Positions 10,363 to 25,106 of a stretch of 25,272 nucleotides of DNA are shown in pieces. The position numbers were made by a program, and so were the translations under genes. The DNA is from a virus. The notes beneath the pieces were generated by a model, which was given only the letters and a program-made list of their open reading frames with translations, did no database searches and had not been told where the DNA came from. Position 1 is the first letter of the stretch, and every line of letters begins with the position of its first letter. The DNA lies in IMG/VR virus record IMGVR_UViG_3300028844_003149, positions 1 through 25,272 of that record; one strand, given 5' to 3'.

Positions 10363-11193
10363 TTACTTAATTTTTTGTTTGTCGTCAATCTTTTTTAAAT
10401 CAAGCGTAAGGTCATCTATCAACTTACCCTTAAATTGATACTCCCCTACGTGAGAAATTTCATCTAACACATATAAATGGCATTTACCACCTATTGCTGT
10501 CCATCTTTTACAAAAGCCAAAGTCCTCACCATAATATCTCTTCGTTTCAGGCTCATGATAGGTATCAAAAAAATTGTAAAAATAAGGTCTTGGAACTTCT
10601 TCTCCGTTAATAATCGTAGGTTGTTTAATTTCTAAATTAGGGTAGGCCTTTATCATTCTATGAAATACATTTTTCTTAATTAACATACATCCTGTTGGAG
10701 CGTGGGATACTTCAGCAACTCCTTCTTTAACTTTTATTTGATTACTACCTTCTATTTTTATAGGCCAAATAAAACCTAATCTAGAAAGTTGTTCTCCAGT
10801 CATATTAGGTTGTTTTCTTTTTTCTACTTTATTCCAATCAATAGTTTTCATTGGATAAGGAGCAGCAATAACGTCCACATCTTTTTCTATCATTTTAAAT
10901 ATTGTTTCTGGTTTAAATTCAACATCAGAATCTATAAATAAAAAATGAGTATAAGGATGTTTATCACATTCTTCTAAAAAATTAGAAACACAAAGATTTC
11001 TACCTTGAGTAACTAAAGAAGATTTTAACAACGTAAAACTAACTAGAATACCTTGACCAAGACAAACTTGTTGAAACTTTAAAAGTGATTGAGTGTAATG
11101 AATAGAGCATTCTGAATGACAAGGTGTTGCTACAAAAATAGAAACTTTTTTACTAACAGGTTGGTTAATCCATATGGGTGTATTATTTTGCAT
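10363..11193 (-). CDS. GT-A fold glycosyltransferase
   Basis: This is a 276-residue protein. The start VSIFVATPCHSECSIHYTQS is the nucleotide-sugar-binding strand and turn of GT-A enzymes. FLFIDSDVEF places a DxD metal/donor motif at residues 88-90. ED (223-224) in RYYGEDFGFCKRW is a likely catalytic acid pair, and ISHVG (His 248) is a typical late metal ligand. No membrane segment is present, so it should be cytoplasmic. Its start overlaps the end of the GT-B gene by 11 bases and has AAGGA upstream, so the pair is made together. It would transfer a sugar from an activated donor; acceptor and sugar cannot be read from sequence. Candidates are virion protein, modified DNA base or surface glycan. 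Confidence 0.85.
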   Translation of the reverse strand: MQNNTPIWINQPVSKKVSIFVATPCHSECSIHYTQSLLKFQQVCLGQGILVSFTLLKSSLVTQGRNLCVSNFLEECDKHPYTHFLFIDSDVEFKPETIFKMIEKDVDVIAAPYPMKTIDWNKVEKRKQPNMTGEQLSRLGFIWPIKIEGSNQIKVKEGVAEVSHAPTGCMLIKKNVFHRMIKAYPNLEIKQPTIINGEEVPRPYFYNFFDTYHEPETKRYYGEDFGFCKRWTAIGGKCHLYVLDEISHVGEYQFKGKLIDDLTLDLKKIDDKQKIK

Positions 11194-12112
11194 TTATTAT
11201 TCCTTTTAAAAAATTAGTCCAAGCCATACCTATTTTAGTCCAATTATAATATTGATTTACATAATCTACTTGAAAACTTAAATGTTTTTGAATCCCAGGA
11301 TTATTTAAATTAGGTGCTGCGTTTTCAACAGCAAAAGCAAAGTTAGCTGCTAGATTTAAATGATTAGCTTGATAAGGAACGTATGTTGAAAACTCTGCAC
11401 AAGTTTCATACAAAGCTCCAAAGTCTGTAGTAATAATATATAAACCAGCTGCCATAGCTTCTATTGCAGATATACAAAAAGTTTCTTCCCAAATATTAGG
11501 ATAAACAAACATATCGTATTTATGTAAATTTTCTTTTATATATTCATTTGGTTTATATCCAATATAATTAACATTCGGTAGCTGTTTAGCTTGAGCATAT
11601 AATTCTTCATAATGTTTATCATTCATTTGTTTGAATGCTGTGCCATATACTTCACAGGAAGAATAAACATCTAATTCTATATTAGGATTTTTTATAAGTT
11701 GCATAGTTGCTAACATTACATTTAATCCTCTCCAAGGTGTAGGATGAAAAATTAATTTTACTTTTTTATCTTTTTTTTGAAAAAGTCTAGGTTTAATATT
11801 ATCTATTCCATTTTTAATTACTAAACATTTTTCTGTTGGTACGTTAAACTCTCTTCTAAATTGTTCATAATTCCAATGTGAGTTAAATATATACCAATCA
11901 TATTTTTTGTGATTGTTTTTATCTAAAAACCAAGGTCTTAAATTAGGTTGATCATAAGAATTTTTCTGCCAAAGTATGTTTGGTTTTGTTGGATGTAACG
12001 GAATCTTCTCTGGAACTGAAGTTGTTATTTGAACTTTATCTAAAAGACTTTCATCAACATGCTTTTTTAAATATTCAAACTGTAACTCAGTACCACCTCG
12101 CGGTGCTTGCAT
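11183..12112 (-). CDS. GT-B fold glycosyltransferase (GT4-like)
   Basis: This is a 309-residue protein. The N-terminus APRGGTEL is the glycine-rich acceptor-side loop found at the start of this family. Residues about 118-130 (KLIFHPTPWRGL) hold the conserved Arg that binds donor phosphate. PNIWEETFCISAIEAMAAG places the E-x7-E donor-binding motif at Glu 210 and Glu 218. At 309 residues it is compact compared with the 350-400 usual for GT4 enzymes, but both Rossmann lobes appear present. It starts 3 bases after the stop of the 12116-12307 gene and overlaps the GT-A gene, so the two glycosyltransferases form one translational unit, perhaps acting in sequence on the same acceptor. The acceptor is unknown. 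Confidence 0.85.
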   Translation of the reverse strand: MQAPRGGTELQFEYLKKHVDESLLDKVQITTSVPEKIPLHPTKPNILWQKNSYDQPNLRPWFLDKNNHKKYDWYIFNSHWNYEQFRREFNVPTEKCLVIKNGIDNIKPRLFQKKDKKVKLIFHPTPWRGLNVMLATMQLIKNPNIELDVYSSCEVYGTAFKQMNDKHYEELYAQAKQLPNVNYIGYKPNEYIKENLHKYDMFVYPNIWEETFCISAIEAMAAGLYIITTDFGALYETCAEFSTYVPYQANHLNLAANFAFAVENAAPNLNNPGIQKHLSFQVDYVNQYYNWTKIGMAWTNFLKGIINAK

Positions 12113-12638: not shown

Positions 12639-12701
12639 CTAAGAAACCAGTTTTTCTGGCTCATCTACTGGATCTGGAAAAACTGGTGTTATTGTACCCA
12701 T
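12639..12701 (-). CDS. 20-residue micro-ORF with perfect Shine-Dalgarno
   Basis: The frame ATG 12701 to TAG 12639 encodes MGTITPVFPDPVDEPEKLVS, an acidic, proline-rich peptide. A perfect AGGAGG (plus 12711-12716) lies 9 bases upstream, and the ATG shares a base with the TAA stop of the tail hub gene (TAATG). The next gene starts 3 bases after its stop without its own ribosome site. These three facts support real translation, either as a functional small peptide or as a coupling leader for 12300-12635. It also contains an 11-base perfect inverted repeat. It is too short for ordinary gene callers. Confidence 0.55.
   Translation of the reverse strand: MGTITPVFPDPVDEPEKLVS
12646..12687 (-). other. 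Perfect 11-bp inverted repeat within the micro-ORF
   Basis: ACCAGTTTTTC (12646-12656) and GAAAAACTGGT (12677-12687) are perfect reverse complements around a 20-base loop. In the minus-strand mRNA the stem would lie wholly inside the micro-ORF and end 10 bases before the next start codon. No U-run follows, so it is not an intrinsic terminator. A translation-control hairpin is possible. Confidence 0.6.
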
Positions 12702-14644
12702 TATCTTCTACCTCCTGCGTGAATATCTAATCTTAAAGTGCCATATCTCCACGACTGGTCTTTACCATCATTTTCAATTTTCAGACTTACTTGTCTTCCT
12801 CTAACTCTTGTGCTTTTAAATTCAGTTGTAGTATTAATTGTAAAAGGTCCTGTAACTAAAGGATAATTATTATCAGTTGTTTCGGATGATGCTGGATAGT
12901 TTCTAAATCTTAAAGTGACTTTTGCATTACCTTCTAAATTTTTAAAGTCGGGTATAAATCTAGATACTCTCATAATATTTTCACCTGCTCCATTTAAACC
13001 TTGTTGCGCGTCTAAATCATAATCACCAGATATTACATAAGAAGTTATAGCAAACGATGTAGTATCAGCAAGAACAGCATTAGTGCCTGTTTCATGTGCC
13101 CAAAATCTCGTTGCTCCGTATGTATTTGATGCACCATTAATAACTGGAAAAGAGGGTACAGTGCTTGCTAAAAATTCAGTAGCATAAGGCAATGAATAAG
13201 TATGATTGTCTTGATAACTTGTTCTGGATAAAGATCCTGTTGACCAAGTATTTTCTACATAGTTATAGGTTACTACTCTATCAATTTGAGCTGATCCTGC
13301 TTTTGGATAAAACCAAAATATTTCATTGTATAAACTGTTGTGTTCACCATAAGCAATTTTACTAGCTTCATAGTTTATACCTAAATTAGAGTTTCCAGTT
13401 GTAAATACAAAATCTTCTACGAGTGATCCTAATTGTGTTACTGTTCCATCAAATTTAAAAAAACCTCCACCGAAACCCATCCAATATACAGCTCCTTGTG
13501 AATATACCAAAGTGTGTTGTGATAAACACCCACAGTTAGAACCAACTTGTCTAAGTGAAAAAGTAAAAGGTGGTCCAACAAATTGAATTACATAAGCTGC
13601 TTGATCTGTTAAAACCAACACATAATCTTTACCTTGAACAGCGGCTATAATTTCATTTCCTTGATCAAGTAAAAATGTTCCTGCAGTATTTGTTGCAGTT
13701 GGAGTATAAGTATTAAAGTCTTCTTGGTTTGAAAATCGAATAAACATTTTATTTTGTGTATCTGTATTACCTATAGTTTCTTCTGTTCCTATATGAAACA
13801 AATGTCTGTCTCTATCTGACACAAGAGTTATAACTGAAGCTGTAGGTGCATTTGTCATTACAACTGCTCTTGTATCAATTGCCGATGGGCCATCTTGAGC
13901 AATAGTATTCCAAGTAAAAGTTCTGCCGTTGTGAATTGTTGCAACAAGAGTTTGACCAAAAGTGTCCAGTGACCAGTTACCAGGATCTAATGTTACATTT
14001 GAAGATGTTGATGCTTCTCCCCATTTTTCACTACCGTAAGTATCTGTACCCCAACCAAACGCCGAAGTTTGTGCAATGGGTCCTATGGTTACATATCTAT
14101 TCTGAGTCGCTGATCCAGCAGAAGATATGCCAGAGCTTGTTTCATTTGAAGGCATTGTAATTGTATATGCATTACTTCCGCTTAAAGATGTTACTTCAAA
14201 AACATTTGTTGTAAAATCTGCTGCAACAAAAGACGTACCACTTCCAGGTAATGTTACATTTTTAAATTTTACATAGTCTCCAACAGCTACTTGTGCTGCC
14301 GTTACATTTACAGTTACTGTAGCTGACCCGTTTGTGGTTGTAAAAGTTACACCTGATTGATCTGCTTCTACGGGTGTAATATCATAAAAAGCAGACTCGT
14401 AATAAATTACTAATAACTTAGATGTACCAATGGCAGCATACTTTCTACCATCTAAGTCTGACCAACTAAGTTGATCACGAGCAGGACCTGATAAAGTTGC
14501 ATTAACAAGTTCTGACCAACCCCCTATTTTTTCTGGTTGACCATATCTAAATCTAACATTGTCTCCGTCAGTCCATTGACCTTCAGCACCTGTTTCAGTA
14601 TCTTGTTTATTAAAACCTGGTCTAAAATTAATTTTTTGAAGCAT
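12701..14644 (-). CDS. Tail hub/nozzle protein (stabilisation-protein-like, predicted)
   Basis: This is a 647-residue protein beginning MLQKINFRPGFNKQDTETG, followed by GQWTDGDNVRFRYGQPEKIGGW. This N-terminus is a strongly conserved signature of a large tail protein in marine podoviruses. Family members I know are annotated as stabilisation or tail-tube proteins, and by analogy with P22 gp10 or T7 gp12 they close the tail below the adaptor. The body is all-beta with repeated hydrophobic strands (KLLVIYYESAFYDI, YVLVLTDQAAYVIQF, GAVYWMGFGGGFFKF), consistent with a beta-propeller core; a CGC pair lies at SNCGCLSQ. No strong ribosome site precedes ATG 14644. It is separated from the other tail genes by the inverted modification cassette. 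Confidence 0.7.
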   Translation of the reverse strand: MLQKINFRPGFNKQDTETGAEGQWTDGDNVRFRYGQPEKIGGWSELVNATLSGPARDQLSWSDLDGRKYAAIGTSKLLVIYYESAFYDITPVEADQSGVTFTTTNGSATVTVNVTAAQVAVGDYVKFKNVTLPGSGTSFVAADFTTNVFEVTSLSGSNAYTITMPSNETSSGISSAGSATQNRYVTIGPIAQTSAFGWGTDTYGSEKWGEASTSSNVTLDPGNWSLDTFGQTLVATIHNGRTFTWNTIAQDGPSAIDTRAVVMTNAPTASVITLVSDRDRHLFHIGTEETIGNTDTQNKMFIRFSNQEDFNTYTPTATNTAGTFLLDQGNEIIAAVQGKDYVLVLTDQAAYVIQFVGPPFTFSLRQVGSNCGCLSQHTLVYSQGAVYWMGFGGGFFKFDGTVTQLGSLVEDFVFTTGNSNLGINYEASKIAYGEHNSLYNEIFWFYPKAGSAQIDRVVTYNYVENTWSTGSLSRTSYQDNHTYSLPYATEFLASTVPSFPVINGASNTYGATRFWAHETGTNAVLADTTSFAITSYVISGDYDLDAQQGLNGAGENIMRVSRFIPDFKNLEGNAKVTLRFRNYPASSETTDNNYPLVTGPFTINTTTEFKSTRVRGRQVSLKIENDGKDQSWRYGTLRLDIHAGGRR

Positions 14645-14691
14645 ATCTGTCTATAATACCTAATTTTGTTTATTTGACTAGACTATTTTTA

Positions 14692-14697
14692 TATAAT
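14692..14697 (+). promoter_or_regulatory. Candidate -10 element for the plus-strand modification cassette
   Basis: A perfect TATAAT at 14692-14697 lies 20 bases before ATG 14718, in the 73-base divergent gap. The nearest -35-like hexamers are badly spaced (TTGACT at 14674-14679, 12 bases; TTGTTT at 14667-14672, 19 bases). It may be a weak or activator-dependent promoter, or chance in AT-rich DNA. Confidence 0.35.
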
Positions 14698-14717
14698 AGA
14701 GTATAGCCATATCATAA

Positions 14718-15224
14718 ATGATGAAAGAAAACGATAAAAAAGATCTAGGCTTTACTATCATAGATAATTTTATGGATCAAACCTATTTCAAGCAATTGCA
14801 AGATGTGGTTATGGGTGATCAAATGTCTTGGTTTTTTCAAAAAGAAGTAAATAGCTTTGATAAAAATATATATTTTACACATATTCTTTATCAAGATTAT
14901 GCTCCTTGTTCTAACCTTTGGGGACATTTTCAAAACCTAGCACTGAGATTAGATGCAAAAGCTTTTATAAGAATTAAAATGAATTGTTATCCTAGAACAG
15001 ATAAAATTATAACACATGCTAGTCATGTGGATGAAGACTTTAAGCATAGAGGTGCTCTCTTTTATTGGAATACTAATAATGGTAAAACCATTTTAGAAAA
15101 TGGAACTGAAATAAAATCTGTTGCAAATAGAATGTTACTATTTAATGCAGCAAGACCTCATCAAAGCACGACGTGCACAGATCAACCAGCTAGGTACAAT
15201 ATAAATTTTAATTTTTTTAAATGA
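14718..15224 (+). CDS. 2-oxoglutarate/Fe(II)-dependent oxygenase
   Basis: This is a 168-residue protein of the double-stranded beta-helix 2OG oxygenase type. The iron triad is His 103-x-Asp 105 (in ASHVDED) and His 148 (in NAARPHQS), with Arg 159 (PARYNINF) placed to bind 2-oxoglutarate. The 43-residue gap between the second and third ligands is normal for the prolyl-hydroxylase-like group. It should use O2 and 2OG to hydroxylate a substrate in the cytoplasm; the substrate is unknown. It is the first gene of a plus-strand cassette and overlaps the carbamoyltransferase start by four bases (ATGA). There is no clear ribosome site, and ATG 14721 is an alternative start. All catalytic residues are intact. 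Confidence 0.85.
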   Translation: MMKENDKKDLGFTIIDNFMDQTYFKQLQDVVMGDQMSWFFQKEVNSFDKNIYFTHILYQDYAPCSNLWGHFQNLALRLDAKAFIRIKMNCYPRTDKIITHASHVDEDFKHRGALFYWNTNNGKTILENGTEIKSVANRMLLFNAARPHQSTTCTDQPARYNINFNFFK

Positions 15225-16879
15225 GAATATTAGGGATATCTCCTTATCATGACGCCAGTGTTTGCATCCTAGACGATGGAGAAATTACATACTTTTCAAA
15301 ACAAGAAAGATTAACACGTAAAAAAAGAGATGAGTTAGGTGAAAATCAACTTACTGTTTTAAATTATGTTTTAGATAATTATCAAGATACACCAATTGAT
15401 AAAATAGTTATATGTTCTCCAACACCAAATTCTCAAGGTGTTGATTGGTTACAGATGTATATGTGGACAAAAATAAAAAATGCTAAGGGTTGTCAAATTA
15501 TAAAATATTGTCAAGATCATCATTTAGCCCATGCAACTTTAGCTTTTAACAATAGTGGTTTTAAAGAAGCTTTAACTTTTGTTATCGATAGAAATGGTGC
15601 AATGATGGAAGATAGAATAAGAGAAAGTGAGTCTGTATTTATTTGTAAGTATCCTGCTAATTTTAAAACTATATATAAAAATTATTTTCTTGTTAATAAA
15701 GGACAAGACTATGATGTAGAAAATCATCAGCTTGTTTCTAAAATGAAAAAAATATTTAAAGATGCAGAAGTAAAAGGTGATAGCACTATGAACATTACCA
15801 AAGTTTATGAATCCGCAACAACATTAATTGGTCAACATGTTTTAGAAAATGGAAAAACTATGGGTCTTGCTGGTTACGGAAAAGATAAAAAATTTCCTGA
15901 CTTAATGAATGATGATTTATATTTTCATTATCACGGCATGGAAGTAGGTTATAAAGAACATTTTGGTTTACAAAATAAAAACTTTGATAAAAGAAAATCT
16001 TTGTACGCAGACTATGCTTTTCAAGTTCAAAAACAAACTCAGGAAATGGTTCTTAATCTAGTTAAGAAGTTTGTTAAAAAAACAGGAATACGTAATGTTT
16101 GTTTAACAGGAGGTTATGCATTGAACGTTGTAACAAACGGATATTTAATTGAAAAATTACCTCATCTAAATTTTTATTTTGAACCACTTGCAGATGATTC
16201 TGGAAATAGTCTAGGAGCGGCTATGGACATATACAGAACTTTAACCAAAGATAAAACAATTCGTAAATTAGTTCATACCTTTTTTAATCATACTAAAGAA
16301 AAAATAAAACCTATTGGAAAAAAATGTAGTGTTGCTGATATAGCAAAAGCTTTATCTAAACAAAAAACAGTTGCAGTATACTATGGAAAAGCAGAATCAG
16401 GTCCTAGAGCTTTAGGACATAGATCTATTTTATTTGATGCAAGAAATAAAAATGCCAAAGACATAGTAAATAAGATTAAGAAAAGAGAATGGTACAGACC
16501 GTTTGCTTGTTCTGTTTTAGAAGAAGATGCAAATGAGTATTTTATTATGTATGGTTTAAATGAATCTCCTTTTATGACTATTTCTTTTCCTGTTAGAAAA
16601 GAGAAAAAAAATATTATACCGGGTGTAATTCATGTTGACAATTCTTGTCGTATACAAACTGTAAACAACTCTATTCCTCATTTTTTTGAATTACTTACTG
16701 AATTTAAATATTTAACTAATGTTCCTGTTTTATTAAACACATCCTTTAATCTTGCTGGAGAGGCTTTAGTTGAATCTTATGAAGACGCAATAAAAACATT
16801 TAAGAAATCAGATATTGATATATTATGGTTTCCAGAAACAGAGAGGTATATAAATGATAAGTCCAATTTGGCCATTTGA
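15221..16879 (+). CDS. NodU/CmcH/TobZ-family O-carbamoyltransferase
   Basis: This is a 552-residue, full-length member of the family. The N-terminal Kae1-like domain starts LGISPYHDASVCILDDG, has the metal-site HHLAHA (His 100, 101 and 104) and a GLAGYGK loop (about 215-221). LTGGYALN (about 295-302) and the C-terminal domain motifs ESGPRALGHRSIL (about 392-404), WYRPFACSVL and NTSFNLAGEALVESYEDA (about 506-523) are all present. Enzymes of this family use carbamoyl phosphate and ATP to carbamoylate a hydroxyl group, for example on Nod factors, cephalosporins or tobramycin. Here it is sandwiched between two hydroxylases that could create the acceptor hydroxyl. Overlaps of 4 and 26 bases with its neighbours show a single translational unit. 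The substrate is not readable from sequence. Confidence 0.93.
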   Translation: MRILGISPYHDASVCILDDGEITYFSKQERLTRKKRDELGENQLTVLNYVLDNYQDTPIDKIVICSPTPNSQGVDWLQMYMWTKIKNAKGCQIIKYCQDHHLAHATLAFNNSGFKEALTFVIDRNGAMMEDRIRESESVFICKYPANFKTIYKNYFLVNKGQDYDVENHQLVSKMKKIFKDAEVKGDSTMNITKVYESATTLIGQHVLENGKTMGLAGYGKDKKFPDLMNDDLYFHYHGMEVGYKEHFGLQNKNFDKRKSLYADYAFQVQKQTQEMVLNLVKKFVKKTGIRNVCLTGGYALNVVTNGYLIEKLPHLNFYFEPLADDSGNSLGAAMDIYRTLTKDKTIRKLVHTFFNHTKEKIKPIGKKCSVADIAKALSKQKTVAVYYGKAESGPRALGHRSILFDARNKNAKDIVNKIKKREWYRPFACSVLEEDANEYFIMYGLNESPFMTISFPVRKEKKNIIPGVIHVDNSCRIQTVNNSIPHFFELLTEFKYLTNVPVLLNTSFNLAGEALVESYEDAIKTFKKSDIDILWFPETERYINDKSNLAI

Positions 16880-17432
16880 GGCTGACAAAGTACATCACTA
16901 TGCATATGCAGATAATGTATTAACAAAAAAAGAATGTGAGGATCTTGTATTCTTTGCAAAATCAATGGATCCTGAAGAAGCTTTTGTAGGAAAAGATAAA
17001 AAATTAAATCATAATATTAGAAAAAATAAGGTTAGATGGTTAACACCTCATAATGAGATACAAGATGTGTATAGAAAAATTACTGATGCAATTGTATCTT
17101 TAAACAAAGATTTTTTTAATTTTAAACTTTATGGTATTTATGAAAGTCTACAATTTACTACTTATGGTAAAGATGAAAAGTATACTAAACACACTGATAG
17201 ACTTTTTAGTAGTGTAATTAGAAAATTATCTTTTTCAATTCAACTTACAGATCCTAAAGAATATGATGGTGGAGATTTAGTTTTGTATGATGCAGATACA
17301 CAAACAAAAATGAATAGAGAACAAGGAACAATAATTGTTTTTCCTTCTTTTATTCCACATGAAGTTCAACCTGTAACAAAAGGTGAAAGAGATGCTTTAG
17401 TAGGTTGGATAACTGGGTCTAATTTTAATTAA
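16854..17432 (+). CDS. 2OG/Fe(II) oxygenase of prolyl-4-hydroxylase/PKHD type
   Basis: This is a 192-residue protein with His 113-x-Asp 115 (YTKHTDR), YDGGDLVLY (about 137-145, the conserved strand of the PKHD/P4Hc group), His 169 (FPSFIPHEV) and Arg 179 (KGERDALVGW). The spacing of these ligands is typical. It is a different subfamily from the 14718-15224 enzyme, so it is not a simple duplication. The start at 16854 is supported by GAGAGGT upstream, inside the carbamoyltransferase end, which it overlaps by 26 bases. Its stop overlaps the stop of the convergent 17429-17764 gene (TTAA). Predicted role: hydroxylation of an amino acid side chain, sugar or base as part of the cassette; the substrate is unknown. 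Confidence 0.9.
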   Translation: MISPIWPFEADKVHHYAYADNVLTKKECEDLVFFAKSMDPEEAFVGKDKKLNHNIRKNKVRWLTPHNEIQDVYRKITDAIVSLNKDFFNFKLYGIYESLQFTTYGKDEKYTKHTDRLFSSVIRKLSFSIQLTDPKEYDGGDLVLYDADTQTKMNREQGTIIVFPSFIPHEVQPVTKGERDALVGWITGSNFN

Positions 17433-17764
17433 ACAGTTTGCCAAGTATTAGCGTCTTCGTCCCAATATGAATAACCTTCAGGTTTTCCTGACGGTTCATC
17501 CCATTTACCTGTAGAAGTATTGTAAGTAAAAGATTCAGATGGTTTAGGTTCTACAAAAGCATCATTGCTAGAATCATAAGTATAACCAATACTTGCCCTA
17601 ATTTTTCTTGAACCACCATCTAAAAAATATTCTACATATTGATTATTAGAATCAGCTAAAGGTTTAACAGCAGCTGCTTTTTCTGCTGTAGTAACATCAT
17701 CTTGAAATACAGTTGTTTCAATGACTTCGTTAGAATTATTTATTTCTGCCCAATATTTAGCCAT
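17429..17764 (-). CDS. Short virion protein, marine phage GIGYTYD...PPKP-type family
   Basis: This is a 111-residue protein starting MAKYWAEINNSNEVIETTVF, with IRASIGYTYDSSNDAFVEPKPSESF, TGKWDEPSGKPEGYSYWDED and a terminal WQTV. This order (IGYTYD, then AFxxPKP, then a W-D pair, then Y-W-DE-W) matches a short virion protein family I know from marine cyanophages and pelagiphages, probably a tail accessory. I chose ATG 17764, which forms a TAATG overlap with the upstream gene. The same frame continues open upstream to 18145, but that region reads antisense-like Arg/Trp repeats from the glycine-rich gene in another frame and is not protein-like. It ends tail-to-tail with the plus-strand oxygenase. 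Confidence 0.75.
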   Translation of the reverse strand: MAKYWAEINNSNEVIETTVFQDDVTTAEKAAAVKPLADSNNQYVEYFLDGGSRKIRASIGYTYDSSNDAFVEPKPSESFTYNTSTGKWDEPSGKPEGYSYWDEDANTWQTV

Positions 17765-18621
17765 TATAAAGGGTACCTCACTACTACAATTCCAGCTGAA
17801 CCAGATCCACCTGTTCTGTTTTGGCCGCCATTTCCGCCTCCGCCAGAACCAAATCCTGTTGCAGAAGGAGCTGTTCCTTGACCATTTTGTACAGAGCCGT
17901 TTCCGCCTCCTCCTTGACCGCCTTGACCAGCAGACATTTGCCAAGTTCCACCGCCGCCACCGCCAGCATAATATTGATTTGAACCTGTTTGAAAAGCATT
18001 TTGAATTCCTGCGCCGCCTGCTCCTCCAGTACTTCCTGATCCTCCAGTTCCTGCCTGGCCTGCGCCACCGCCGCCTCCGCCGCCGTGTTGTGGAGATCCT
18101 GCTCCGCCTGAGCCACCTGACGTACCAAATGAAGCTCCCGACCAAGGGGACTGAACACTAGATTGGTTAGAAGATCCTCCACCTGTAGGTTCTCCTCCAC
18201 CGCCGCCGCCGCAGCCGCCGCTGCCGCCACCACCTTGTCGAAATCCACCACCTTTTCCGCCACCATTACCTGTTTGACCGAATCCAGTTGTGTTTGATCC
18301 AGAGCCCGCAGAACCTGCGCCGCCACCAACTGAGATTGAATAAGAAGCGGGTCCGCTTGTGTTTTGTGTTAATACGATTGCTCCTGATGCACCAGCACCT
18401 CCGCCGTGATTTTGGCCTCCGCCACCACCACCGCCGATTACCATTACATCTAATTCGCTTGTTTCGCCTGCTTCAATTTCAAAAGTTCCGTTTGAAGTAA
18501 AGGTGTGTACTCTAAATCCACCATACTCTGTGATAGTTCCACCTGTAGCTGTAAGTCCACCACCAGCTCCGAAACCGAAACCTTTTACTGATGCTGAACC
18601 TATTGTTGTTAAAATTGGCAT
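17764..18621 (-). CDS. Polyglycine-rich tail tip / receptor-binding candidate
   Basis: This is a 285-residue protein. After a short N-terminus, residues about 35-65 (FRVHTFTSNGTFEIEAG, then LDVMVIGGGGGGG) match the Gly-rich domain seen in many phage tail fibre proteins. The rest is dominated by runs of Gly with Ser, Asn, Gln and Ala, ending GIVVVRYPL. Such sequences can pack as polyglycine-II helix bundles, as in the tip adhesin gp38 of T4-like phage S16, so host binding is plausible. Codons are forced to be GC-rich here, making a local GC island in AT-rich DNA. AGGAGG lies about 12 bases before ATG 18621, and the stop is fused to the next start (TAATG at 17764). Confidence 0.75.
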   Translation of the reverse strand: MPILTTIGSASVKGFGFGAGGGLTATGGTITEYGGFRVHTFTSNGTFEIEAGETSELDVMVIGGGGGGGQNHGGGAGASGAIVLTQNTSGPASYSISVGGGAGSAGSGSNTTGFGQTGNGGGKGGGFRQGGGGSGGCGGGGGGEPTGGGSSNQSSVQSPWSGASFGTSGGSGGAGSPQHGGGGGGGAGQAGTGGSGSTGGAGGAGIQNAFQTGSNQYYAGGGGGGTWQMSAGQGGQGGGGNGSVQNGQGTAPSATGFGSGGGGNGGQNRTGGSGSAGIVVVRYPL

Positions 18622-18638: not shown

Positions 18639-19718
18639 TTATGCAAACTGTGTTTGAGAAGCTAAAACTGTAAACGTAGAAGCTGCAGTTTTTATTGCTG
18701 TCATAGTATATGTATCGTTTGATGTTGCGTTTCCTGCAGTGAATGAAGATCCACCTTGATAAACAATAGTTACGTTTGTTGATTTATTGTCTACTACAAA
18801 AGAAGTAGCAGCCCACGTGTTGTTATTATTTTTATTAATATATGCAACAGTAATTGATTCACCTGTATCCATTACAGCGTCTAATGAACTAGATCCGTTT
18901 CCTCTTAAATTAACTCTAAAGTTACCAGATGCTGCAGCAGTACTTAAAATAACTGCTTGTGTTTGTGTATCAATTACAACGTTTGTAGAAAATGAATTAT
19001 CAACGGTTACTTTTTCAGCAAGACCTTGAATCTTACCACTACCATTTAATGTAACTCTTCCTGTTCCTTTTGGAGTTATATTAAGATCAATGTTTGTGTC
19101 ACCACCTGTTGCTGCTAAGTCAGGAGCATTTCCTGTTGCAGCGTTTGTAACATCAAATTGATTTACAGCAGATGCTGTTTTTTGAAATACAATTTGTTCA
19201 TTACCAGAATCATCATTAATACCATGAGCATCATCAAATTGAATATTTTGTGAATTAGTATCTAAGTCTGCAGATAATTGTGGTGAGTAGTCTGAAGAAA
19301 GATCAGTTAAACCAGTGTCTACAACATTTGTTCCATCTGAGTAAAGAATTTTAGTTGTTTTTTCATTGTCACCAAAAGTTACTCCAGATCCTGATGTTGT
19401 TTTAACTGTTAAAGATAATGTTCCACCAGTTGAGTTTTTTACTATATAAGTTTTTTCAATTCCGTCAGGAACCTTAACTGTACAATCACCTGAAGGTGTG
19501 CCTGTAATATCAATCACAGCATTTTTACCATTTGATAATGCACCATTTGTAAATGCTAAAGTAATAGCGTTTGTAGATGCAACAGAAACAGCTTCTCTTC
19601 CAGCAATTGCTTGTTGAACAATGTTTAAGTTTGTATTTGTAATGTCACCCCAAAGACCAGCTTTTTCACCGGTGACCATTAACTCTAGTTTTAAATCTGT
19701 ACTATAACTTGATGGCAT
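18639..19718 (-). CDS. Tail fibre protein
   Basis: This is a 359-residue protein. The N-terminus PSSYSTDLKLELMVTGEKAGLWGDITNTN is a widespread tail-fibre start in marine phages and probably the particle attachment part. The middle has fibre-like Asp/Asn/Thr-rich stretches (DLDTNSQNIQFDDAHGIND, then GDTNIDLNITPKGTGRVTLNG), a pattern common in trimeric beta-helical fibres. The C-terminal 100 residues are a strand-rich domain (ESITVAYINKNNNNTW; YTMTAIKTAASTFTVLASQ). AAGGAA precedes ATG 19718. It sits just before the polyglycine-rich tip gene, as fibre and tip genes often do. Confidence 0.8.
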   Translation of the reverse strand: MPSSYSTDLKLELMVTGEKAGLWGDITNTNLNIVQQAIAGREAVSVASTNAITLAFTNGALSNGKNAVIDITGTPSGDCTVKVPDGIEKTYIVKNSTGGTLSLTVKTTSGSGVTFGDNEKTTKILYSDGTNVVDTGLTDLSSDYSPQLSADLDTNSQNIQFDDAHGINDDSGNEQIVFQKTASAVNQFDVTNAATGNAPDLAATGGDTNIDLNITPKGTGRVTLNGSGKIQGLAEKVTVDNSFSTNVVIDTQTQAVILSTAAASGNFRVNLRGNGSSSLDAVMDTGESITVAYINKNNNNTWAATSFVVDNKSTNVTIVYQGGSSFTAGNATSNDTYTMTAIKTAASTFTVLASQTQFA

Positions 19719-24566: not shown

Positions 24567-25088
24567 TTAAGTATATTGATAGAGTTCATTAAAATTAAAT
24601 GATATGGCATATTTTACTTTTTCTGTAACATTTCTGTCACAACTATGCTTTAATTCTGACGAAAACATAACAATTTTACCTTCTTCAGGTGTAACTTTTT
24701 CGTTTATATCAGGGAAGATTAAATCTTGGTGATGATCATTTAAATATAAAACTCCTGAAATTACAGATGGTGTGTGAGCGTGTTCTATTGTTCTACCACC
24801 AAAGCCTTCTGCTATACCCCAAGCAAGACTTAATTCATAAGGTCTTATAAAATCATGTTTATCAACTTTATCTAAAACAGGGTAAATTATTTTTATAAAT
24901 TCTTTGTCAGAACAAAAATATCGCCAATCAGTCATAAGACCAACAACATTTGTAGCGTAGTTATTTTTAGAAGATTTAACATCTTCTTTTATTTTATCTA
25001 TAAAATATTCAGCATTTATTTTTACTTTACCAACCAAAAATAAATAGTCTTTTTGTATTTTTCCTATTACTTCTTTCTCTATTTTCAT
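24567..25088 (-). CDS. 2OG/Fe(II) oxygenase (Oxy_5-like), third in window
   Basis: This is a 173-residue protein from ATG 25088. Numbered from the longer start at 25106, the core motif is EHAHTPSVISGVLYLNDHH (about 108-126), followed by LIFPDIN, PEEGKIVMFSSELKH (His 154) and KYAISFNF. This order (a His-x-His-x-P, then SGVxYL, then an FxS..LxH box and ISFNF) matches the 2OG-FeII_Oxy_5 family common in marine phages. An ordinary HxD is not evident, which I read as the family's variant first motif; activity is less certain than for the other two. I prefer ATG 25088 because ATG 25106 directly abuts the terminator hairpin and has no ribosome site. The gene lies directly downstream of the capsid gene. 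Confidence 0.75.
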   Translation of the reverse strand: MKIEKEVIGKIQKDYLFLVGKVKINAEYFIDKIKEDVKSSKNNYATNVVGLMTDWRYFCSDKEFIKIIYPVLDKVDKHDFIRPYELSLAWGIAEGFGGRTIEHAHTPSVISGVLYLNDHHQDLIFPDINEKVTPEEGKIVMFSSELKHSCDRNVTEKVKYAISFNFNELYQYT

Positions 25089-25106
25089 TCTATTTCTTTC
25101 TACCAT

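What the first reader, a model, noticed from the sequence alone, without database searches (positions are those of the whole stretch)
14718..17432. Plus-strand cassette: oxygenase, carbamoyltransferase, oxygenase inside a phage tail operon
Three overlapping genes (4-base and 26-base overlaps) encode a 2OG oxygenase, a full-length NodU/TobZ-type O-carbamoyltransferase and a second 2OG oxygenase of a different subfamily, all with intact catalytic residues. Carbamoyltransferases of this family act on hydroxyl groups and 2OG oxygenases make hydroxyl groups, so a two-step hydroxylate-then-carbamoylate pathway is a natural reading. The cassette interrupts the minus-strand tail genes and runs against them. 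Possible targets are phage DNA bases (hydroxymethyl to carbamoyloxymethyl pyrimidine), a virion protein, or a surface glycan. The oxygenases look like prolyl-hydroxylase/PKHD types rather than TET/JBP types, which argues mildly for protein or sugar over DNA.
Basis: partly seen in the sequence, partly recalled or inferred. Interest (0 to 1): 0.82.

Follow-up and report, generated by a model that had tools for sequence, protein, structure and literature searches.

The report
Tail-fibre-linked hydroxylase and carbamoyltransferase cassette
Next to its probable receptor-binding tail fibre this marine virus of bacteria carries three enzyme genes, two that probably add hydroxyl groups and one that probably caps hydroxyls with a carbamoyl group; related viruses swap similar enzyme sets at the same spot, which suggests, but does not prove, that they chemically decorate the virus's own attachment fibre.

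Summary
Three overlapping plus-strand genes (14718-17432) encode a prolyl-hydroxylase-like 2OG oxygenase (oxyA), a complete O-carbamoyltransferase (CTase) and a PKHD-type 2OG oxygenase (oxyB), catalytic residues intact, among minus-strand tail genes. The phage resembles Pelagibacter phages HTVC023P and HTVC027P.

The exact trio was seen only in near-identical contigs. Its place is a hypervariable slot between a fibre gene and a conserved tail gene. Of 47 dereplicated complete slots, 45 hold 1-8 oxygenases; the two without a recognised one carry SPRY-like/DUF7483 proteins, one of them beside a Gly-rich fibre. Carbamoyltransferase, halogenase, sulfotransferase, methyltransferase and radical-SAM genes are optional extras. 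In one natural swap between phages 97-98% identical on both flanks, fibre genes and oxygenases were replaced together. Carbamoyltransferases from several parts of the family tree recur beside oxygenases, mostly with Gly-rich fibres, also in cyanomyoviruses.

Best reading: a fibre-linked tailoring module that hydroxylates, and here carbamoylates, the fibre or a neighbouring tail protein (0.42). Main rival: glycan modification. DNA modification is unlikely. No substrate is shown; coupling holds for fibre type, not fibre sequence, and a Trp-content test was negative.

The parts
14718..15224 (+). oxyA: prolyl-hydroxylase-like 2OG-Fe(II) oxygenase (168 aa; H103, D105, H148, R159)
15221..16879 (+). 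CTase: full-length NodU/TobZ-type O-carbamoyltransferase (552 aa; H10, H100, H104, D123, D326)
16854..17432 (+). oxyB: PKHD-type 2OG-Fe(II) oxygenase (192 aa; H113, D115, H169, R179)
17764..18621 (-). Gly-rich receptor-binding fibre candidate (285 aa, PF21722); proposed substrate or neighbour of the substrate
   Evidence: best fold match cyanophage Pam3 fibre, E 7.7e-5, low TM 0.33-0.36
17429..17761 (-). small protein (110 aa) beside the fibre; copies in near-identical contigs cluster with small proteins beside fibres in relatives; possible fibre chaperone (inference; no Pfam match, no convincing solved relative)
12701..14644 (-). tail647: conserved virion structural protein (phrog_3287) that bounds the variable slot
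18639..19718 (-). p359: conserved gene that bounds the slot on the other side
14645..14717 (.). 73-base divergent intergenic region between tail647 and oxyA; likely place of the cassette's promoter (inference; promoter scan of 14500-17800 found 19 sites against 18.5 expected)
11183..12112 (-). glycosyltransferase (PF00534) in the tail region; relatives found in 77 of 142 tail647 loci, many of them truncated; possible partner if a glycan is the target
10363..11193 (-). gene of unknown function (phrog_1574, no Pfam match) beside the glycosyltransferase; relatives in 62 of 142 loci

Best explanation
The cassette is one version of a hypervariable tailoring module that travels with the phage's receptor-binding fibre. 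Shown: the three genes are there with intact catalytic residues; in relatives the same slot between fibre and tail647 nearly always holds 2OG oxygenases, with optional transferases; the oxygenase repertoire differs between the two main fibre types. Inferred: in the infected cell oxyA and oxyB use Fe(II), O2 and 2-oxoglutarate to hydroxylate side chains of the newly made fibre (Gly-rich protein 17764-18621) or of a neighbouring tail protein, and the CTase makes carbamoyl-adenylate from carbamoyl phosphate and ATP and caps such a hydroxyl (or a Ser/Thr hydroxyl) as a carbamate. The altered residues would change receptor contacts, stability or recognition of the tip, and swapping the enzymes would diversify the tip faster than mutation.
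For: Slot survey: of 142 loci with tail647, 73 have a complete slot, 47 after dereplication; oxygenases in 23 of 23 collar-type, 20 of 21 with a Gly-rich fibre, 2 of 2 other, 0 of 1 with SPRY-like/DUF7483 proteins only (presence table unchanged with a stricter oxygenase definition). Natural swap: L124 against L125/L126/L136, 97.3-98.5% identical on both flanks, fibre genes and three oxygenases replaced as one block. Collar/Gly pairs with tail647 75-90% identical share no oxygenase at 45% identity or more (26 pairs from 4 collar loci), Gly/Gly pairs share 28%, collar/collar pairs 58%. Carbamoyltransferases beside oxygenases and mostly Gly-rich fibres fall in several places of the CTase tree (at least 7 changes of context over 99 rows), including cyanomyoviruses. 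oxyA folds like prolyl hydroxylases that act on proteins; oxyB resembles PKHD hydroxylases. The recognised extras (carbamoyl-, sulfo-, methyltransferase, halogenase, radical SAM) are kinds that tailor peptides and other natural products. The fibre candidate resembles the Pam3 fibre, whose Gly-rich tip is proposed to bind the receptor.
Against: No substrate is shown. Within one fibre type the oxygenase set does not follow fibre sequence: partial Spearman -0.03 for Gly-rich (no pair above 53% identity, so little power) and 0.29 for collar, below the linkage control with p359 at 0.39. The overall 0.66-0.68 correlation (0 of 500 permutations) is thus largely a between-type effect; the overall p359 control reaches 0.48. 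Halogenase slots do not have Trp-richer fibres (p 0.75, 6 against 34 fibres). Neighbouring genes can be co-inherited by linkage alone. One Gly-rich slot (L233, with SPRY-like/DUF7483-family proteins) has no recognised oxygenase, though one unassigned 181-aa gene. 37 of 310 slot genes counted in the 47 slots are unassigned. Relatives of oxyB in phages CRP-810 and DLP_6 lie among replication-type genes, not tail genes. A modification of the host receptor would also be expected to travel with the fibre.
Confidence: 0.42

Rival explanations
1. Glycan modification: the enzymes decorate a sugar, either the host's surface polysaccharide (blocking superinfection or debris binding, which explains linkage to the fibre that reads this receptor) or a glycan put on the virion with help of the glycosyltransferase of the tail region.
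For: NodU/TobZ-type carbamoyltransferases commonly act on sugars (family knowledge); many cyanophage relatives of this CTase sit in the tail-fibre module beside kinase, cytidylyltransferase-like and NAD-dependent epimerase genes and a conserved gene c2 that looked like a GT9 glycosyltransferase to me but has no Pfam match; a glycosyltransferase gene recurs next to tail647 (77 of 142 loci, many truncated); one slot holds an epimerase (L123), others sulfotransferases or methyltransferases. PMC7029224 (passages) proposes surface alteration for glycosyltransferases in pelagimyophage host-recognition islands.
Against: Among recognised slot genes the 2OG oxygenases dominate and a sugar-nucleotide gene was recognised in one dereplicated slot only (L123; 37 slot genes unassigned); oxyA has a prolyl-hydroxylase-like fold; halogenases are odd for a sugar.
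Confidence: 0.25
2. Small-molecule pathway: the enzymes make a hydroxylated, carbamoylated (in relatives halogenated) metabolite that helps the infected cell, as proposed for a cyanophage cluster.
For: Iyer and colleagues (PMC7824862, passages read) interpret the carbamoyltransferase/2OG oxygenase/halogenase cluster of S-SSM6a as a secondary metabolite or capsule-decoration system; the relative S-SSM7 carries CTase, 2OG oxygenase, CTase, a gene labelled denV (oxyA-like family) and halogenase in a row.
Against: No scaffold-making enzyme is among the window's three genes, and none was recognised in the slots (37 slot genes unassigned); composition of the set changes from phage to phage while the place beside the fibre stays.
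Confidence: 0.12
3. DNA modification: the oxygenases hydroxylate a pyrimidine and the CTase makes a carbamoyloxymethyl base.
For: A phage 5-hydroxymethylcytosine carbamoyltransferase is proven (PMC8670742, passages); some CTases in the same 21-row group lie away from any recognised fibre or oxygenase, and S-RIM44 and S-SCSM1 have CTase genes next to thymidylate synthase.
Against: 0 of 9 records tested have a thymidylate synthase or ThyX match (fragments); place among tail genes; the oxygenases resemble prolyl/PKHD hydroxylases and no TET/JBP family is listed for them.
Confidence: 0.06
4. Mobile accessory genes parked at a recombination-prone spot beside the hypervariable fibre, with functions unrelated to the fibre or to each other (cargo, for example 2OG or iron handling).
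For: No fine-scale link between fibre sequence and oxygenase set; related oxygenases elsewhere in other phages; published ideas of 2OG or iron metabolism (PMC3037559, PMC12753301, passages).
Against: Cargo should be of mixed kinds, yet 45 of 47 slots hold oxygenases and the recognised extras are mostly group-transfer enzymes and halogenases (37 of 310 slot genes unassigned); in the one clear swap, absence of oxygenases coincides with another fibre type.
Confidence: 0.15

Closest known systems
Cyanophage carbamoyltransferase/2OG oxygenase/halogenase cluster (S-SSM6a; Iyer et al. 2021, PMC7824862; relative S-SSM7)
   Same: Same enzyme families side by side (S-SSM7: CTase, 2OG oxygenase, CTase, denV-labelled gene, halogenase).
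   Different: Read by its authors as secondary metabolite or capsule decoration; the window's cassette has no halogenase, methylase or sugar phosphatase; its CTase is 32-39% identical to those in the 40 best phage records.
HTVC023P-type pelagiphage 2OG oxygenase genes (PMC9599517)
   Same: Same phage group; several non-orthologous oxygenases, often with so-called ferrochelatases.
   Different: The passages read do not link them to the fibre, and the main text has 0 occurrences of 'carbamoyl'.
TobZ / NodU O-carbamoyltransferases
   Same: Both domains, catalytic residues, full length.
   Different: Substrates there are an aminoglycoside and a Nod factor (recalled); acceptor here unknown.
5-hydroxymethylcytosine carbamoyltransferase (PMC8670742)
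   Same: Phage member of the same enzyme family.
   Different: That one comes from a contig with a thymidylate synthase homologue; none found here.
Viral prolyl 4-hydroxylase for virion proteins (PBCV-1; suggestion for aquatic viruses in PMC9301287)
   Same: Idea of a virus hydroxylating its own fibre proteins; prolyl-hydroxylase-like fold.
   Different: PBCV-1 is an algal virus (recalled); PMC9301287 raises collagen tail fibres and calls the use of the enzyme cryptic (passages), without locus linkage or a carbamoyltransferase.
Myocyanophage Pam3 Gly-rich fibre gp24 and chaperone gp25 (PMC9608196)
   Same: Gly-rich domain in the fibre; fibre chaperone.
   Different: No modification in the passages read (0 occurrences of 'hydroxyl'); fold match is weak (TM 0.33-0.36).

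Membership tests
NodU/TobZ O-carbamoyltransferase | Carbam_trans_N and Carbam_trans_C domains | tested here: met
   Pfam 93 and 194.2 bits, cut-offs 24 and 27
NodU/TobZ O-carbamoyltransferase | Catalytic His and metal ligands (HDA-type motif, HHxxHA, two Asp) | tested here: met
   H10, H100, H104, D123, D326 invariant in 9 and 10 sequences; role of residues recalled from TobZ
NodU/TobZ O-carbamoyltransferase | Carbamoyl transfer to a hydroxyl | not testable with these tools
   needs assay
2OG-Fe(II) oxygenase superfamily (oxyA) | DSBH fold with HxD...H...R | tested here: met
   H103, D105, H148, R159 invariant in 12; fold match to prolyl-4-hydroxylase E 3.9e-8; Pfam score below cut-off
2OG-Fe(II) oxygenase superfamily (oxyB) | Domain score over cut-off and HxD...H...R | tested here: met
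   60.4 bits, cut-off 27; motif
Prolyl/PKHD hydroxylase acting on protein | Hydroxylated protein residue | not testable with these tools
   only fold and sequence likeness
Phage 5hmC DNA carbamoyltransferase system | Thymidylate synthase/dCMP hydroxymethylase homologue in the same genome | tested here: inconclusive
   0 of 9 records for PF00303 and 0 of 9 for PF02511, but the records are fragments of 8-45 kb
Cyanophage halogenase/carbamoyltransferase cluster | Halogenase beside carbamoyltransferase and oxygenases | tested here: not met
   none among the window's three genes; present in relatives L199, L030, L023
Host-recognition island / surface-glycan conversion cassette | Nucleotide-sugar or glycosyltransferase genes in the cassette | tested here: not met
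   none among the three genes; the glycosyltransferase at 11183-12112 is outside the slot
Fibre-linked tailoring slot of HTVC023P-type phages (defined here) | Oxygenases between fibre and tail647 | tested here: met
   in the window and in 45 of 47 dereplicated complete slots

The most novel reading that the evidence does not exclude
Marine phages chemically diversify their receptor-binding fibre with an interchangeable set of tailoring enzymes (up to eight hydroxylase-type genes in a complete slot, ten in one incomplete slot, plus carbamoyl-, sulfo- and methyltransferases and halogenases) encoded beside the fibre: a post-translational counterpart to genetic diversification of host range, with protein O-carbamoylation as one of its marks.
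Probability: 0.3. Interest if true: 0.88.

Novelty: new variant of a known kind. Interest (0 to 1): 0.62.

Why it matters
2OG oxygenases are frequent in marine cyanophages and pelagiphages and their substrate is an open question; published guesses in the passages I saw are 2OG/NtcA signalling, DNA repair, iron use, or secondary metabolites and capsule decoration. A slot tied to the fibre, with interchangeable hydroxyl-adding and group-transfer enzymes, turns that question into one direct experiment: mass spectrometry of tail proteins in isolates that already exist (HTVC023P, HTVC027P, S-CAM8, P-RSM4). If the fibre is modified, host-range prediction from fibre sequence alone would be incomplete for an abundant group of marine viruses.

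Tried and rejected
Fine-scale coupling of fibre and oxygenases: the overall partial correlation (0.66-0.68) vanished within Gly-rich slots and did not exceed linkage within collar slots, so only type-level coupling is claimed. Trp content of fibres in halogenase slots: no difference, 6 against 34 fibres; of 11 residues only Lys had uncorrected p below 0.05. Composition of fibres in CTase slots, 14 against 26: uncorrected p below 0.05 for His, Asp and Gln among 11 residues; not trusted. Promoter and terminator scan: no excess. Cellular origin of the CTase: the best 80 bacterial relatives were at most 37% identical in the best segment; neighbour HMMs built on phage proteins found an oxygenase in 1 of 80 and a sugar gene in 11 of 80, weakly informative. 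Expression timing of the HTVC027P oxygenase genes: not in the passages read. Residues that mark DNA carbamoyltransferases: PMC8670742 names W408, G421 and R423 but the passages do not say which letters mark DNA enzymes, so no test was possible; by motif spacing (inference) the window has V, G and R there. 'Ferrochelatase' family against oxyA and oxyB by HHalign: no support (probabilities 1.2% and 0.4%; oxyA against oxyB itself only 0.3%, so this comparison is not sensitive), although it conserves an HxD...H pattern; it is counted as oxygenase, and the presence table stays the same with oxygenases defined only from oxyA, oxyB and oxyC searches. One-clade test on the CTase tree did not finish and was not run again. 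The CTase labels 'cassette' and 'other' were set by hand; some short contigs labelled 'other' (such as L033, CTase next to tail647) are probably in the slot. Of the extras counted in the 47 slots, Pfam was over cut-off for CTases (L199, L210, L220 and the window), all 4 halogenases, 2 of 4 sulfotransferase slots (L218, L219; L155 weak, L163 none), 1 of 2 methyltransferase slots (L163; L207 weak) and the radical SAM gene. Gly-rich slots: 18 of 21 by family match, 3 by glycine content alone. Considered and rejected: frameshift or sequencing artefact (contigs L001-L005 keep the same frames).

Papers searched for prior statements of fibre modification by oxygenases or carbamoyltransferases: (listings; passages of single papers); none found except the P4H/collagen remark in PMC9301287. 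The library lacks most subscription journals.
Full report
What is there. The window is a 25,272-base virus record. The three plus-strand genes are real: oxyA 14718-15224, CTase 15221-16879, oxyB 16854-17432, overlapping by 4 and 26 bases. The CTase has both domains of the NodU/TobZ family far over the cut-offs, matches solved carbamoyltransferases of novobiocin type, GdmN and TobZ, and keeps the residues expected for catalysis and metal binding (roles recalled from TobZ). oxyB is a clear 2OG-Fe(II) oxygenase nearest to PKHD hydroxylases. oxyA is below the Pfam cut-off and is labelled 'DNA endonuclease V' in PHROGs, but its HxD, His and Arg are invariant in the 12 sequences aligned, and its model (pLDDT 87) matches bacterial and animal prolyl hydroxylases. 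The label is therefore probably wrong for this protein. Five viral contigs (L001-L005) with CTases 97.8-99.8% identical keep the trio in the same frames and, where their length allows, the same neighbours; dN/dS against L003 is 0.24, 0.07 and 0.58 for oxyA, CTase and oxyB (few changes in oxyB).

Whose genes. The conserved tail protein tail647 is 56% and 55% identical to that of Pelagibacter phages HTVC023P and HTVC027P. Both isolates have 2OG oxygenase genes near it: HTVC027P on the opposite strand (gp73, flanked by two unassigned genes) between a tail-collar protein plus small gene and the tail647 homologue, the layout of many relatives; HTVC023P as a co-directional group further upstream and one directly before it. 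A SAR11 or related host is likely, not shown.

The slot. I collected 142 viral loci around tail647 in two searches (each kept only the best 80 of 494 and 456 relatives; some contigs occur twice). In 73 the stretch from p359 to tail647 is complete, 47 after removing slots at least 95% identical. The slot holds the fibre (Collar domain, PF07484 in the representative scanned; or Gly-rich, PF21722 in the two scanned), usually a small protein, then 2OG oxygenases: 23 of 23 collar slots (1-7 genes), 20 of 21 slots with a Gly-rich fibre (2-8), 2 of 2 of other make-up. None was recognised in L124 (SPRY-like, below cut-off, and DUF7483 proteins) nor in L233, which has a Gly-rich fibre, proteins of the same family as those in L124, and an unassigned 181-aa gene. 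The presence table stays the same with oxygenases defined only from oxyA, oxyB and oxyC. Extra enzymes in the 47 slots by family search: carbamoyltransferase 4, halogenase 4, sulfotransferase 4, methyltransferase 2, radical SAM 1; Pfam confirms all CTases, halogenases and the radical SAM gene, 2 of 4 sulfotransferase and 1 of 2 methyltransferase slots. 37 of 310 counted slot genes are unassigned. Orientation: collar slots have oxygenases against the tail genes (22 of 23, one mixed); Gly-rich slots mostly with them (17 of 20). The window's group is one of the 3 Gly-rich exceptions.

Linkage to the fibre. L124 and L125 (also L126, L136) are 97.3-98.5% identical on both flanks, but the block between is wholly different: SPRY-like/DUF7483 proteins without oxygenase in one, Gly-rich fibres plus three oxygenases in the other. 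This is one independent event, since L124 and L141 are 99.995% identical. Pairs of one collar and one Gly-rich locus with tail647 75-90% identical share no oxygenase (45% identity or more; 26 pairs, 4 collar loci), against 28% for Gly/Gly and 58% for collar/collar pairs. Oxygenase and fibre similarity correlate given tail647 similarity (0.66, 0 of 500 permutations; control of fibre with p359 0.48), but within Gly-rich slots not at all (-0.03) and within collar slots no more than the linkage control (0.29 against 0.39). So the claim is coupling to fibre type, not to fibre sequence.

The carbamoyltransferase. In a tree of 99 CTases the window's protein lies in a fully supported 21-row group with others next to Gly-rich fibres and oxygenases (L022, L023, L025, L026, L028, L030) but also with CTases from places without a recognised fibre or oxygenase. 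CTases beside oxygenases, most with a Gly-rich fibre in view, occur in other parts of the tree too: L199/L225, L210/L220, and the cyanomyoviruses S-CAM8, S-MS29 and P-RSM4 (L007, L012, L018) with L064. The fewest changes between 'cassette' and 'other' context is 7 (hand-set labels, quick tree, long branches among them). Other cyanophage CTases follow a conserved gene c2 (no Pfam match; looked GT9-like to me) with PfkB-kinase, cytidylyltransferase-like and epimerase genes in the tail-fibre module, and two lie next to thymidylate synthase. The family thus probably serves more than one pathway in phages.

The fibre. The Gly-rich protein 17764-18621 gives a middling model (pLDDT 71) whose best fold match is the Pam3 fibre (E 7.7e-5, TM 0.33-0.36); the Gly-rich tip of that fibre is proposed to bind the receptor (passages of PMC9608196). 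A sequence profile of the Gly-rich alignment found no solved chain.

How it most likely works. oxyA and oxyB hydroxylate side chains of the fibre or a neighbouring tail protein; the CTase caps a hydroxyl with carbamoyl. Shown: gene content, catalytic residues, predicted fold, slot conservation, exchange with the fibre. Inferred: substrate, order of steps, effect on host recognition. The main rival, glycan modification, is not excluded, since an enzyme that alters the host receptor would also travel with the fibre. DNA modification is unlikely: no thymidylate synthase or ThyX match in 9 records (fragments), while the proven DNA carbamoyltransferase comes from a contig with a thymidylate synthase homologue (passages of PMC8670742).

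Known or new. 2OG oxygenases in cyanophages (PMC3037559, passages) and in HTVC023P-type phages (PMC9599517, passages) are known; a cluster with carbamoyltransferases, halogenase and oxygenases was read as secondary metabolite or capsule decoration (PMC7824862, passages); prolyl hydroxylase and collagen tail fibres were mentioned together, use 'cryptic' (PMC9301287, passages). In the searches made I found no report of a fibre-linked tailoring slot or of fibre carbamoylation. I file it as a new variant of a known kind; if the fibre is the substrate it would be more than that.

Noticed in passing
window 24567-25106 (-): A fourth 2OG oxygenase (oxyC; PF13759 E 2.3e-9, TIGR02466 below cut-off) near the far end of the window, outside the slot.
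   Followed up: no
window 14718-15224; phrog_274: The PHROG and GenBank label 'DNA endonuclease V' (denV) is carried by a family whose member here has a prolyl-hydroxylase-like fold and HxD...H...R; probably a propagated misannotation.
   Followed up: partly
L018:4832-5422; HTVC023P gp67; phrog_3531 family: The 'ferrochelatase' said to partner 2OG oxygenases conserves an HxD...H pattern and may itself be an oxygenase; HHalign gave no support, but it also failed between oxyA and oxyB.
   Followed up: partly
L014, L017, L044, L045, L048, L010: Cyanophage tail-fibre modules with CTase, conserved gene c2, PfkB kinase, cytidylyltransferase-like, epimerase and in some HAD phosphatase genes: looks like a heptose-type sugar pathway (inference).
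   Followed up: no
L082:3192-4055 and 73 others (cluster c1): Fibre-region proteins beside CTases in cyanophage loci (74 proteins in 31 loci); those seen are strikingly rich in Cys, Gly and aromatic residues.
   Followed up: no
L013 (S-RIM44), L019 (S-SCSM1): CTase split into two adjacent ORFs beside thymidylate synthase; candidates for DNA carbamoylation with separated halves.
   Followed up: no
L008:4001-5593 (PQ898602.1): A CTase annotated as '2OG-Fe(II) oxygenase' in GenBank.
   Followed up: no
L123:2758-8920: A slot with seven oxygenases plus an epimerase, a radical SAM protein and an unassigned 245-aa gene in two opposed runs.
   Followed up: partly
L118, L134, L218, L219: Sulfotransferase genes in the same slot, another hydroxyl-capping chemistry.
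   Followed up: partly
L195:4507-5595, L206:4350-5471: Halogenase-family genes of 362 and 373 aa whose best stretch covers only the later part of the Trp_halogenase profile (196-436 and 225-431 of 458), shorter than those of L199 and L223.
   Followed up: no
L125 against L126 (5886-6776 and 6380-6715): Otherwise 99.9% identical phages differ by a length change around the second Gly-rich protein gene: recent fibre variation.
   Followed up: no
L038:305-1474, L068:1260-2393: Proteins with two oxygenase-like domains fused head to tail.
   Followed up: no
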